Below, one piece after another: positions 771-63,533 of a stretch of 64,000 nt of DNA. The DNA lies in the NCBI GenBank assembly GCA_963921795.1, contig OY997649.1, positions 59,236,598-59,300,597 of the forward strand, in the 5' to 3' direction. The stretch's first letter is position 1. Each line of letters starts with the position of its first letter. The translations under genes and the position numbers were made by a program. Source of the stretch: Nannobrachium achirus. Taxonomy: Eukaryota; Chordata; Actinopteri; Myctophiformes; Myctophidae. The notes beneath the pieces are model-generated. The model saw nothing but the letters and a program-made list of their open reading frames with translations. It was not told the DNA's origin and ran no database searches.

Positions 771-1382
771 TTAACCCATTTAGAACGGGTACACAATTTG
801 TGTTTCATTATTTTATGCTTTAACTATTGAAAAATAGCAGATATACAAGCTCACAGCGCGGCACTGAGTGCCGCGCTGCGAGCTTGCAGATCTGCTATTT
901 TTGAAAAATCGTGAAAATTTGAATTTTGACCCGATTCTATAAGTGTCTTTTGAATCCTTCTAAGGTTTTTTTTGAAAAACCTATGTTTCTATGTCAGCAA
1001 TCTGGCTTAGCCATCGTCAAAGAAAAGGTCCTTTTCACTCAACTGGAGCTCAGTTAGTCTGTTCTTTAGAGACTACTATGTCAGTGGTTCTCAAACCTTT
1101 TCATGTGAAGGACCCCCAAAATGATATATATTTGGCCACGGACCCCCATCTCAAAAATATTTAGTTCCAGGGACCCCCCAGAAGTAAATTTGAGTTACTA
1201 TAACGTTCGCTTTGAAAATACATATATTCAAAGATTTGCACATATTATTTTCACGACTTTTTCAAAAATAGCAGATCTACAAGCTCGCAGCGCGGCACTC
1301 GGTGCCGCGCTGTGAGCTTGTATATCTGCTATTTTTCAATAGTTAAAGCAGTCAATATGCCCAGGCCTAAATGAGTTGTTAA
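771..1382. mobile_element. Family C/A composite MITE with two core hairpins
   Basis: The unit is bounded by TTAA at 771-774 and 1379-1382. The outer ends are CCCATTTAG and CTAAATGAG. Core hairpins lie at 831-901 and 1265-1335, mirror images of one another: the outer arms read GCAGATATAC and the inner arms GCAGATCTAC. A family-A hAT-like end (CAGTGGTTCTCAAACC) begins at 1082 inside it. Non-autonomous, with no coding sequence. Confidence 0.7.
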
Positions 1383-1485
1383 TTGATTCCGGGTGGAGTT
1401 GAGTCCAAGTATTGAAGTGGACAAGTCCTTTGAACATTCATTGGACTTCCTTCAGCTGTCTCTCTCTCCCCCATTTCAGTGTCAG

Positions 1486-1962
1486 CAGTGGTCCTCAACC
1501 TGTGGGTTATTAAATTATTTTTGTGGGGTCCCGACTCCCCAGATGATGATCTTAATGTGCAACATTGTTTTCTCACTCAAAAGGAAACAAAACAACATAA
1601 CGTTTAAGTTTATTCCGGTTAACAGCAGACATACAAGCTCACGTCGCGTCACAGATGCCACCGTTGTGAGCTTGTAGATCACACTCGGCTGCGACACCGG
1701 AAGCTGCCGCACACCTTCTGAGCAATGCACGATGGGACGTTGGAAAGTTGTGGATAGAGGGTATCTGCACATTTCTGCACAAGGTGACAATTTGAGCACT
1801 TTTTAATACCTCTTAAATGACAAATAGACGATCTGCTATTTTCACAATAGAACCGTGTTATACACAAAATGTAACTCCTCAACTCTTAGTGCTCGTCAGG
1901 GGGTGGCGGTCCCCAGTTCAAATATGAGTATTTTGGGGGCCTGAAAAGGTTGAGAACCACTG
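1486..1962. mobile_element. Family M hAT-like MITE
   Basis: Ends CAGTGGTCCTCAACC and GGTTGAGAACCACTG form terminal inverted repeats typical of hAT/Charlie-type MITEs. A decayed core hairpin sits at about 1621-1685, with a further half at 1828-1850. The flanking 8-mers do not match well, so it is old. Confidence 0.75.
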
Positions 1963-2038
1963 TGTTGCAGTACTGCACAGGTAGGCAGAGACGCACCTGG
2001 CAGATGCTGCTGACAAACACATCAAACACAGCATCTCC

Positions 2039-2115
2039 ACCTCTCTCTCTCTCTCTCTCTCTCTCTCTCTCTCTCTCTCTCTCTCTCTCTCTCTCTCTCT
2101 CTCTCTCTCTCTCTC
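2039..2115. repeat. (CT)n microsatellite
   Basis: About 38 CT units. Open frames here encode only Arg-Glu or Ser-Leu runs and are not genes. Confidence 0.95.
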
Positions 2116-2257
2116 CCCCACAACAATGAGGTGATGGCTGCAGTGCGGTGACTGCTAAAGCAGTGTCAATGAGGGTGTGATGACGGAGAGTGTCTGTCTA
2201 CATGTGTCTCCTGTCTGCATGTCTCTCCAAATGCCTCGCTTTTACCACCGCCACCTC

Positions 2258-2460
2258 ACACACACGCACGCACACATACACGCACGCACGCACACACGCA
2301 CACACACACACACACACACACACACGTGTGCTGTGCACACCCCCACCTCCACACGCAAGCTTACAAACTCATGCACACGAACGCAGACGCATCTACCCAC
2401 ACACACATACAAACTTCACACACCTCTACACACCCCCACACACACTCACGCGCGCGCGAG
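2258..2460. repeat. Compound CA/CG microsatellite
   Basis: Interrupted ACAC/GCAC runs ending in GCGCGCGCG, followed by a C-run at 2477-2490. The Thr-His open frames here are artefacts. Confidence 0.9.
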
Positions 2461-2499
2461 GCGACCTGCTTTTCTGCCCCCCCCCCCCCCTCTCTGTCA

Positions 2500-3595
2500 T
2501 CGGGAAAGTGTTTTTAAAGGAAGGAAGTGAGATCAAACGCGGCAGGAAAAAATGCCTGTCTTGGCGTTCTTTTGACAGCCCCGCATCCTGAACCCCCTTT
2601 TTAAGGAGGGAGCAGAGAAGAAAAGAGAAAGAAAATAGGACATGTTTGGCACAATTTATGCAGCGCTAATTTTTCCAGCCCCCGCGTCGACTGTTTACAG
2701 AGTCCTGTGCTTCTCAAACCTCCCTCCCCCCTCCCCCCCTCCCTCCCTCCTCCGCCTCTCTCCATCTCTCAAACCACCAACTCTTCCTTTTACTTTTGTC
2801 TTCCCTCCCTCCCTCCCTCCCTCTATCTCTCACTTCTTCTTCTTGCGGTTTATGTTATTGTGATTTCTTTTTTTTCTCGTGTCACTAGTGAGCAGGATGC
2901 TCTCTCCCTTGGGGGTGTGGCTAAATTTACATCTCTCCATATGACAAACACAAACAAAGAGCCAAATAAATCAAATGTGAGGTGAAGAAAGAAAAGGAAA
3001 AAAGGGTGCTGAGGAGAGCGAGAGAAAGAGAGAGAGAGAGAGAGAGAGAGACTATGGAATTTTATCACCTCCGATTGTGTACTATATGTACAAGCATTGA
3101 TCAGATCTTGACAGATTATGGCGGTTGCAACATCGTAGCGGTATGGAACATATAGGAACAGAATGAGTTCAGTCATCGTGTCATTTCTCACAACTGAGTT
3201 GTTTTTTTATTTTTTATTCCAGCAGTGGTGTGTGAGTCAAAAAAAAGTAGGCTAAAGTTAAAAAGGCGCTCCTGGAATCCAGGGAGTTAGATCACGAAGA
3301 GAAATAAACAATGGTGTCTGTTTAGTATTGAAGGAAAAATTGTTAGTCCCGCAACAACAAAAAACAAGCTGTTCTCAAAATTATTATCAAGGCACAATTT
3401 TCAGAAGTGAAGTTTTATTTTATTTTTTATTTTTTTTTTACTTCATTTTATTGATTTGTTTTGGCCTGCAGGGTATGATAAATTATTTTGAGAATGGCTT
3501 GTTTGTATTTATTTATTTATTTTAATTCAATATTAAATGGAGGCCATTGTCAAACTCTGTTCATCTGAAGCCCACACACGCGCGCACAAGCACAC
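2500..3595. other. Low-complexity and AT-rich spacer
   Basis: Contains CCCT-rich tracts (2722-2832), a (GA)n stretch at 3017-3050, T-rich tracts at 3415-3440 and otherwise no recognisable gene or element. Confidence 0.6.
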
Positions 3596-61320: not shown

Positions 61321-61349
61321 AATCATAAAACTTCTTCCTATACTGTACT

Positions 61350-61855
61350 TGGAGGGTGGGGTTGGGGGATGATGAGAGGGAGCGGAGCGATAGATGGAGA
61401 GAGATACCATCTCAGCTGCGATTGAGACAATATAATTATGATATGGAAATTACGCCGAGACAGGAAAGTTGAGTTGGAGGGGAGCTCATCTCGTTGAGTC
61501 TGCGCCTTTACCTCCCAATCTCCTAGCATGTATCAGTATCAATTACCCATGTACCCAAAGCAATTACCAAATAATTCATTTGCAATTCTGTTTTTCCACA
61601 ACATTATTGCCTGCTTGAAAATGAATTTGCGTGGCAGCTTGAAACGGATAAATACGTGTGATGTAGTTTGCACTCTGTTTACTCCTGCGCGAGCCAATGA
61701 TGTTGACTTTGATAGGCTATATTATATGAAGTGAGAAAGATGCAGCTAACCAGCACGGCAGCCGCGCCTTTCTTTGAACTTCGGGGAGACATTTTGGCGT
61801 GCGTGTTTGAAATGCACAAACACACTGTCCTCAACCCTCCATTGAAGTGGTTCTC
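61350..61855. promoter_or_regulatory. Candidate conserved block, copy 2
   Basis: Counterpart of 40,200-40,720; very few differences. Confidence 0.4.
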
Positions 61856-61941
61856 AACCTGTGGGCTGAGGATATTGCAAGTGGGCCTTGCAAATAATAG
61901 GCAGATGCTGGCAGGTCATTTGTACCCATGGCATCCTATAG

Positions 61942-62399
61942 CAGGGGTTTTCAAAGTGGGTGACGGGGCAGTCCAGGGGTGCCGCGACGGCAGTCCAGGG
62001 GTGCCGCGAGATCATTTGATAATATTTGGAATTTATTTGGACACTTGAAAAAATATTTAGTATCATTTTAAACTTGAAGTACAAGTTATTTTCAGTCAGT
62101 TCTAATCAAAATGGCTATTATCTCAACGTTTTCCTCGCAACATAATCACTAAAATTAAAATATCGTCACTGTCGGGCAGAAACCTCTGTCGCACAAAACT
62201 AGTGAAAACAGCCGATCTACAAGCCGAGAGGTGTTCTGTGCTTGTAGATCTGCTGTTTTCACTAGTTTAGTACATTTTATAGATAGTTTAGTACATCTTG
62301 TAGATCTGCTGTTTTCACTAGTTTAGTACATTTTATAGATGATAAATACAAAACGAACCATTTTGAACATACAAGGTTTCCACCCGACAACGATGATAT
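61942..62399. mobile_element. Family G with nested L, copy 2, right end lost
   Basis: CAGGGGTTTTCAAAGTGGG start; a repeated GGCAGTCCAGGGGTGCCG; family L 62,161-62,399 with core 62,203-62,262 and a local duplication of CTGCTGTTTTCACTAG (62,256 and 62,306). Confidence 0.78.
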
Positions 62400-62404
62400 G
62401 CTAT

Positions 62405-62652
62405 AAATACTAGCCCAGAAAAATCAATGACCATACATGAAGCTAGTTAGCATTTGTTTTTGTTTTTAGGTTTTTTAGAACTTTGATTATATTGTGTTTC
62501 TTCTAGATAGATATCCATTTGCATTTGTTATATTGTTGATGATGTACTGACATATTATCCTGTTTATTATTGTGATGTTATCTGCTTATTGTAAATCGCT
62601 TTGGATTAAAAGCGTCTGCTAAATGCCTAAACTGTAAACTGTAAACTGTAGA
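62405..62652 (+). mobile_element. SINE/LINE 3' segment, only in copy 2
   Basis: AT-rich segment ending GTAAATCGCTTTGGATTAAA, GCGTCTGCTAAATGCC and an (AACTGTA)n tail. It replaces the family-G right end found in copy 1. Confidence 0.6.
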
Positions 62653-62872
62653 CTGAGGATATGTTCTTGGTTTACCTATGATCCTAGATTACTATTTCTA
62701 TGCATTTGATGTATTACCTCGTGTTTTTCCTTGCTTACTGTAAATCGCTCTGGATTAAGAGCATCTGCTAAATGCCTGAATTGTAAATTGGCAAAACGCA
62801 TATATTTTATAGATAATATAACATGTAGCCATGTATGATATGTACTGTATGTATTGTGTATGTAGGGATGGG

Positions 62873-63110
62873 ACGATATGAAAATTTCATATCACAATTA
62901 TTGTGACAAAAGAAATCGCGATTTACGATATTATCGCGAAAATCAATATCCATTATCCTGGGGCGGAACATTTGCCAAACAATAGCCGATCTACCAGCTC
63001 GCGACGCGTTGTGAGCTTGTAGATCGGCTATTTTTTGGCAAAGACATTTGATAGAGATTGAACAAAAAGATTGTATCAAGTACGTATATTATTATACCGT
63101 AAGTACCTTT
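62873..63110. mobile_element. Family D left half, copy 2
   Basis: Counterpart of 42,372-42,610; core 62,981-63,035. Confidence 0.8.
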
Positions 63111-63533
63111 TACCTTTTTTTTGTACCTTTTTACGCTTACCTCCCTAATCGGGAGATAAGTAACCGTCAGGTCGCATACACAAACTTTAGAAGGCAATGG
63201 CAGCCAATCAGGAGGGTGACGGCCTTTAAGTAAAAGTATCAATACTGCATTGTTGGCTTCTGTAGAAATATATACTCTGTTACAAGTACAAGTCCCACAT
63301 TCAAAATGCACTTTGATAAAAGTATCGACATCAAAATATACTTTAAAAAAAGTCCATTTCACAAGTTAAAAATGTATAAACAATCTTTTGAAAATAGCCA
63401 AACCTGTATTGTGAGCTTGTAGATCTTCTATTTTCAAATGGCTGAAATATACTGTATATGGGGCTGAAATGGTTAGTGTGTTTTATAATATCTAAATCTA
63501 CAAAGTAACTCTCTCTCTCTCTCGCACACGTGC

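What the first reader, a model, noticed from the sequence alone, without database searches (positions are those of the whole stretch)
831..63440. One palindromic core hairpin shared by at least eight unrelated MITE families
A hairpin with arms AAAATAGC(A/C)GATCTACAAGC and a GC-rich apex occurs about 50 times, intact or as halves. Examples: 831-901, 1265-1335, 4128-4198, 5643-5713, 6860-6936, 9389-9470, 14361-14412, 15469-15539, 16219-16295, 47453-47530, 50395-50458, 51335-51424, 52345-52417, 55551-55627. It lies inside families with different terminal repeats: B (CAGGGGYGTC), C (TTAA-CCCATTTAGG), D (TAGGGATGGGACG), I (CAGTGGTGGAAA), K (CAGGGGTCTTCAAC), L (TATCGTCNTTGTCGG), M (CAGTGGTTCTCAACC) and the 46.7-kb repeat. 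The short flanks of the core are family-specific (GTG, TTTGCC, TTC), and so is the apex (GCGCGGCAC, AACGCCTCGC, ACACGTCGC). Known MITE families normally share no internal sequence unless they share termini. Possible readings: a hairpin element that transposes into other MITEs, repeated capture by gene conversion, or a module selected for some role.
Basis: partly seen in the sequence, partly recalled or inferred. Interest (0 to 1): 0.92.

Follow-up and report, generated by a model that had tools for sequence, protein, structure and literature searches.

The report
Hairpin module shared by many MITEs
One short hairpin of DNA sits inside several differently ended families of small jumping genes in this genome, with about a quarter of a million exact half-copies in all, which suggests a shared part that is passed between families, though whether it helps them move is not known.

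Summary
The window has 54 core matches (30 paired hairpins, 24 single arms), and the 14 quoted places are right. Genome-wide the 16-nt arm occurs 249,988 times exactly, the reversed pattern 0 times. Seven TIR-defined families carry it, with apparent 8-bp, TTAA and TA target sites (some tests inconclusive), but B/C/I and D/K share sequence beyond the core, so they are not all unrelated. In window plus 250 kb of sampled genome, cores form 13 flank groups of two or more and 36 ungrouped.

Conservation starts sharply at AAAATAGC, peaks at GATCTACAAGC and fades inward. The arms change together, and about four family-specific bases outside the core are palindromic too. No target-site duplication flanks the core. 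'Core-free' copies of M and L have ragged, mostly different junctions, as deletions would leave; an older core-free M subfamily is not excluded.

Best reading: an inherited internal module of non-autonomous transposons, moved between families with neighbouring DNA and kept palindromic by template switching. A role in amplification is plausible but untested. Closest precedent: coral CMITEs.

The parts
831..901 (.). core hairpin, family C
1265..1335 (.). core hairpin, family C (facing the previous one)
1486..1962 (-). M copy with a collapsed core at the family site plus a second core inside an insert
1623..1684 (.). second, divergent core in the insert of that M copy
4128..4198 (.). core hairpin, family C
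5643..5713 (.). core hairpin, family B
6860..6936 (.). core hairpin, family L, with palindromic GTG/CAC extension
8935..9728 (+). M element (7 of 8 bp target duplication)
9389..9470 (.). core hairpin in M, with the A to T change on both arms
14361..14412 (.). core hairpin with shortened apex, family I
15469..15539 (.). core hairpin, family C
16138..16400 (+). L element (TA at both ends)
16219..16295 (.). core hairpin in L
17660..18079 (+). D element (7 of 8 bp target duplication) with core at about 17785-17858
22887..23366 (+). B element with cores near both ends of a body shared with C
26117..26752 (+). C element (TTAA at left end) with cores near both ends
28357..28840 (.). core hairpin whose flanks match no other window family, split by a hAT-like insert at about 28390-28819 with target duplication CTTGTAGG(T)
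35263..36083 (.). L element absent from the other copy of the segmental duplication; a probable LINE fragment interrupts its hairpin
46704..46781 (.). core hairpin at a locus with one copy in this window
47453..47530 (.). core hairpin, family L
50395..50458 (.). core hairpin, family B/C
51086..51164 (.). divergent core hairpin in an L-like element
51208..51647 (+). K element (7 of 8 bp target duplication) with core at 51335-51424
52151..52654 (+). I element (hAT-like ends; no target duplication seen) with core at 52345-52417
54768..54824 (.). core hairpin in an M-related subfamily (M2); paralogue at 34313-34369
55466..56000 (+). B element absent from the other copy of the segmental duplication; cores at 55551-55627 and 55879-55957
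62975..63038 (.). core hairpin in D; its paralogue at 42484-42537 lacks 10 bp of the apex

Best explanation
The core is an internal hairpin module of non-autonomous DNA transposons. Each TIR family acquired it early and then copied it with the rest of the element (supported for M and L as far as the tests go). It passed between families together with neighbouring DNA, by nested insertion, filler capture or replacement of the outer ends (shown as shared flanks for B/C and D/K, weaker for I; inferred for the rest). Inside each family the two arms are kept complementary by template switching at the hairpin, which also copies about four bases of family flank into the opposite arm (the pattern is shown, the mechanism inferred). 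After insertion the palindrome is lost by ragged deletions (pattern shown). That the hairpin raises amplification, and that this is why many core-bearing families are abundant, is my guess at the reason for its spread and is inferred only.
For: Scale: 249,988 exact arms genome-wide, reversed control 0; 147 arms at up to 3 mismatches in 250 kb of sampled genome, reversed control 1, scaled to about 0.98 million (bootstrap 0.69-1.29 million). Breadth: 155 cores in 13 groups of two or more and 36 ungrouped. Edge: mean top-base frequency 0.36-0.40 in flanks, 0.84 at AAAA, which lies outside the search pattern, 0.94 at GATCTACAAGC, 0.37-0.40 again from +26 to +40 (49 rows). Arms in concert: 27 cells changed on both sides against 9.5 in shuffles on 11 hairpins; 23 same-base double changes against about 2.7 expected in 86 hairpins, 9 of them independent by group, position and base. 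Palindromic extension at -8 to -5: own arms match 0.51-0.57, other lineages 0.22-0.37. Fixed site in M: 4 of 4 aligned window copies have the core or a scrap at one place. Junctions of 'core-free' copies: M 18 different strings in 20, 7 of 20 keeping 7 nt or more of the stem (6 by script, one, L134, by eye because the script lost its anchor); L 19 different in 20 by eye, 13 of 20 keeping 7 nt or more; joined native flanks alone give 5. Apparent different target sites. Shared wider modules.
Against: No test shows that the hairpin affects mobility. The comparison of core and flank conservation within related pairs was uninformative (aligner null identity 0.79). In the window, repeats without the core also reach three or four places. 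13 of 20 M junctions keep no clear stem scrap, and three share one junction, GTTCTAATTTCTGCC, so an older core-free M subfamily is not excluded. In one search the number of pairs with a double change (9) is reached by 39 of 500 shuffles and the count of pair types is below the shuffled mean. Target duplications are imperfect or missing in many copies, and one B copy (12075-12755) has an 11-bp exact repeat at its ends instead of 8. The donor family and direction of transfer are unknown. I-C homology rests on short blocks.
Confidence: 0.46

Rival explanations
1. Neutral hitchhiking: a core-bearing element was very abundant early, so its fragments were caught by many other MITEs through nesting and repair; the hairpin has no role.
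For: Shared wider flanks in B/C, D/K and perhaps I; a second core in an insert without visible TIR or target duplication inside an M copy; nested elements in the window.
Against: Random capture should give random edges, yet the rows share one sharp outer edge at AAAA, and conservation is highest in GATCTACAAGC (partly set by the search pattern).
Confidence: 0.31
2. A free-standing mobile hairpin: the core with its short extension is itself an element that inserts into MITEs and elsewhere.
For: Sharp common edge, palindromic ends, 36 ungrouped contexts in 314 kb; a possible core-free M junction shared by three copies.
Confidence: 0.15
3. A module kept for an RNA or host role, such as a source of small RNAs or a protein-binding palindrome, rather than for transposition.
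For: Stable 70-77 nt hairpins; other MITE hairpins have become microRNA genes (PMC1784062, title and abstract start in a search listing).
Against: No Rfam family at gathering score in the window. 24 of 54 window matches are single arms, so many copies are not maintained by the host.
Confidence: 0.08

Closest known systems
CMITEs of Acropora corals (PMC2872659; abstract and sections 10 and 14 read)
   Same: An internal region of 75 bases is better conserved between MITE families than their TIRs; its origin is unknown; a role in transposition was suggested by the authors.
   Different: CMITEs have TTAA target sites and are tied to piggyBac-like transposons, about 1,600 copies estimated in A. millepora. 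Here the core occurs with ends of several apparent types, is a hairpin, and exceeds 100,000 copies. Whether the CMITE region is a hairpin I could not see.
Angel MITE of zebrafish (Izsvak et al. 1999, seen only through passages of the review PMC12628747)
   Same: A fish MITE whose single strands pair with themselves in vitro; a stem-loop amplification mechanism was proposed.
   Different: Described there as one element, not a module shared by families. Angel sequence was not compared here.
Highly conserved domains of SINEs, e.g. the V domain carried by MER6 (PMC6887750, abstract read)
   Same: A conserved internal domain found in different carriers, and able to move into a DNA transposon.
   Different: It comes from SINEs, and the abstract does not describe it as a hairpin.
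Template-switch maintenance of hairpins (PMC8794818, abstract and start of text read)
   Same: Replication copies one arm from the other, giving paired changes and new perfect stems.
   Different: Described for RNA genes; here proposed for transposon DNA.

Membership tests
MITE (non-autonomous DNA transposon), for the carrier elements | short, multi-copy, with terminal inverted repeats | tested here: met
   L 227-264 bp (one of 821 with an insert), K 440-441 (one of 198), D 420, I 504 (one of 1374), C 636, B 467-681, M 477-794 with matching ends; repeat groups. Coding capacity was not tested beyond an ORF list
hAT (families B, D, K, M, I) | 8-bp target-site duplication | tested here: inconclusive
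   7 of 8 bp for one copy each of D, K and M; 6 of 8 for a second K; B only roughly supported by the empty paralogue site, and one B copy has 11 bp; two other M copies and both I copies show none that is clear
TTAA-target element (family C) | TTAA at both ends | tested here: inconclusive
   TTAA directly at 4 of 6 C ends, two bases off at the other two
TA-target element (family L) | TA duplication | tested here: inconclusive
   TA at both ends in 5 of 6 window copies, but TA could be part of the inverted repeat; the empty paralogue site reads TG; genome copies vary
CMITE-like group with conserved internal region | internal region better conserved between families than the rest | tested here: met
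CMITE-like group with conserved internal region | sequence homology to the CMITE internal region | not tested
   its sequence was not at hand
Independent mobile hairpin element | target-site duplication at its own edges | tested here: not met
Independent mobile hairpin element | clean empty sites | tested here: inconclusive
   none common to the copies read in two families, 20 copies each, but three M copies share one clean junction
Known structured RNA | match to an Rfam family | tested here: not met
   gathering thresholds, window only

The most novel reading that the evidence does not exclude
The hairpin is a portable cis-acting amplification module for DNA transposons: elements mobilised by different transposase superfamilies gain copy number by carrying it, so it behaves as a selfish part that selects which MITE families become abundant.
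Probability: 0.3. Interest if true: 0.88.

Novelty: new variant of a known kind. Interest (0 to 1): 0.65.

Why it matters
MITE success is usually explained by ends that fit a transposase. A single internal hairpin shared by families with different ends, at 10^5 to 10^6 half-copies in one genome, would point to a second requirement that does not depend on one transposase, and it can be tested with existing transposition assays. It also gives many natural replicates for how palindromes are repaired, extended and deleted, and it warns that repeat annotation by internal similarity may merge distinct families.

Tried and rejected
Rejected or empty: a known structured RNA (none in the window); relatives in viral contigs (exact 20-mer pattern, none) and bacterial or archaeal contigs (86 16-mer hits; 1 of 86 had a loose second arm, in sequence that otherwise does not resemble the core); arm sequences in the literature (none); full-length homology of the families; a core-only transposon with target duplication. 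The comparison of core and flank conservation within related pairs is withdrawn because its null identity was 0.79; that script also stopped with an error. The LINE label of the ORF at 35373-35864 is from memory; Pfam gave no match. hAT, piggyBac and Tc1 as names for families here are recalled from end sequences and target sites. Duplicated hairpins showed no excess of substitutions (6 of 265 aligned core positions against 78 of 1,406 in flanks) but indels in 3 of 5 pairs, two at the apex. In the 97 flank rows of the genome sample, 53 had both arms, 16 one arm, 16 a remnant and 12 none; among these, two near-identical L114 copies join M flanks with only a stem scrap and a third has neither arm. 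The 95 rows in the window included 19 without a recognised core; on reading, most show scraps and a few are truncated or weak hits.
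Full report
What is there. The window contains a hairpin with arms AAAATAGC(A/C)GATCTACAAGC and a GC-rich apex. The 14 quoted places are correct. 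A search with stated mismatch limits gives 30 paired hairpins and 24 single arms; two of the single arms are halves of one interrupted hairpin. A best-match scan with the 20-nt arm gave 26 hits, against 5 hits together in 20 Markov sequences of equal length. The hairpins folded are far more stable than shuffles (8 of 8, z -5 to -16).

Genome context. The window is part of a 1.66-Gb assembly of 564 contigs; no call names the organism. The exact 16-mer occurs 124,852 times forward and 125,136 times reverse, the reversed pattern 0 times. In 25 stretches of 10 kb, chosen by position before any sequence was seen, there are 48 exact arms and 147 arms at up to 3 mismatches; the reversed control gives 1; 24 of 25 stretches hold at least one arm. 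Scaled up this is about 0.98 million arms (bootstrap 0.69-1.29 million).

Carrier families. Seven sets of ends were found: B, C, D, I, K, L, M. Apparent target sites differ: 7 of 8 bp direct repeats at one copy each of D, K and M; TTAA directly at 4 of 6 C ends; TA at both ends of 5 of 6 L copies. Other copies lack them, and one B copy has an 11-bp repeat, so the superfamily labels are leads. A segmental duplication inside the window (33.4-43.4 kb against 53.8-64 kb) shows an L element missing from one copy and a B element missing from the other, so both moved after the duplication, or were lost. With all cores masked, the families fall into different repeat groups, save that B and C share one; five groups of three or more places have no core nearby, two of which are probably one interrupted repeat.

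Not all families are independent. B and C share about 180 bp next to the core and about 22 nt outside it. D and K share both flanks (nominal p 0.003 and 0.005). The right flank of I has two blocks in the order of the C end, reaching its TTAA (nominal p 0.01-0.18 for six C copies). A degenerate K copy has a D-like left flank and a broken core (my reading). M and its divergent subfamily M2 keep the core at the same place. One M copy has a second core in an insert of about 142 bp without visible target duplication. In the genome sample two loci (in L096 and L102) carry a core with the same unusual arm and apex, so that insert may belong to a further core family.

Breadth. In window plus sample (314 kb), 155 cores form 13 flank groups of two or more and 36 ungrouped. 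The ungrouped include damaged members of known families (for example 8043, K-like, and L109 at 6530, L-like), the two halves of one hairpin, and weak matches, so 49 is neither a family count nor a count of independent lineages. Between 10 hand-chosen lineages, identity is 0.28-0.30 outside the core and 0.75-0.90 from AAAA to the end of the 16-mer. In the 49 rows the edge is one base wide: top-base frequency 0.41 at -5, 0.78 at -4. The four A are outside the search pattern, so this is not selection by the search; conservation within the 16-mer is in part ascertained.

Arms evolve together. On 11 hairpins of equal length, 27 cells are changed on both sides (shuffled mean 9.5, 0 of 500 as high) and 91.2% of cells pair (85.0% shuffled). 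The number of pairs with a double change (9) is less striking (39 of 500 as high), pair types are fewer than in shuffles, and related rows inflate the counts. In 86 paired hairpins, 23 same-base double changes occur against about 2.7 expected; 10 are one inherited L change, and 9 are independent by group, position and base. Outside the edge, positions -8 to -5 match between arms of one hairpin (0.51-0.57) but not between lineages (0.22-0.37); at -10 the match is 0.28, with smaller rises at -11 and -12. Window data alone give 0.25 differences within against 0.75 between families in 16 hairpins. Inverted copying of a few flank bases is what template switching at a hairpin would leave (PMC8794818, abstract).

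Insertion or loss? No direct repeat flanks the core at any offset tested. Queries made of joined M or L flanks found contiguous matches in the genome (41 and 66 match rows; 40 candidates scored of 3,482 and 1,867). Twenty of each were read. For M there are 18 different junction strings; 7 of 20 keep 7 nt or more of the stem (one of these, L134, judged by eye), 13 do not, and three share GTTCTAATTTCTGCC. For L, 19 junctions differ by eye and 13 of 20 keep 7 nt or more; joined native flanks alone give at most 5. One pair of L copies with the same genomic flanks has two junction lengths. Repeated deletion of an unstable palindrome fits this well, especially for L; for M an older core-free subfamily remains possible. 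The search favours copies with little left between the flanks, so it says nothing of how common they are.

Mechanism. Shown: presence in families with different ends, a sharp edge, concerted arms, a short palindromic extension, many different junctions where the core is missing, and wider shared modules in B/C and D/K. Inferred: transfer by nesting, filler capture or end replacement; template switching; any benefit to amplification. Rivals are neutral hitchhiking, a free mobile hairpin, and an RNA or host role.

Comparison with the literature. CMITEs in corals are the closest case: eight elements first found by TIR search shared a 75-base internal region, later six families (PMC2872659, abstract and sections 10 and 14). 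A review tells of a stem-loop amplification model for the fish MITE Angel (PMC12628747, passages). A SINE domain carried by a DNA transposon shows that internal domains can change carriers (PMC6887750, abstract). Searches of an open-licence library listed no paper whose title or abstract start describes one hairpin core shared across transposon superfamilies; that library lacks most subscription papers, and Repbase/Dfam could not be searched.

Verdict. A real and very abundant pattern, a new variant of the conserved-internal-region MITE. The functional reading is open and testable.

Noticed in passing
33439-43390 and 53783-64000: Segmental duplication in direct orientation, offset about 20.5 kb, with transposon insertions that differ between the copies.
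   Followed up: partly
33507-33633 and 53851-54101: A 31-bp minisatellite with 4.1 copies in one duplicate and 8.1 in the other, units 100% matching.
   Followed up: no
28390-28819: A hAT-like element (ends AGAGATGTTACC / TAGGGATGGTCC) sits inside a core hairpin with target duplication CTTGTAGG(T).
   Followed up: partly
35394-35990: Probable LINE 3' fragment joined into the apex of an L hairpin, with loss of most of the other arm.
   Followed up: partly
29170-29838: Inverted repeat of about 670 bp (87% self-complementary) inside another repeat; no core.
   Followed up: no
L097 2508-2556, L102 278-347, L108 6940: A core variant GACCTCCAAGC, with the matching change on the other arm in L097 and L102, forms its own flank group.
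   Followed up: partly
L098 7344 and 8750: A core half-site lies in two near-identical flanks 1.4 kb apart, probably a tandem duplication.
   Followed up: no
41048-41114 and 62201-62317: In the duplicated L element one copy has a partial tandem repeat that includes an extra core arm.
   Followed up: partly
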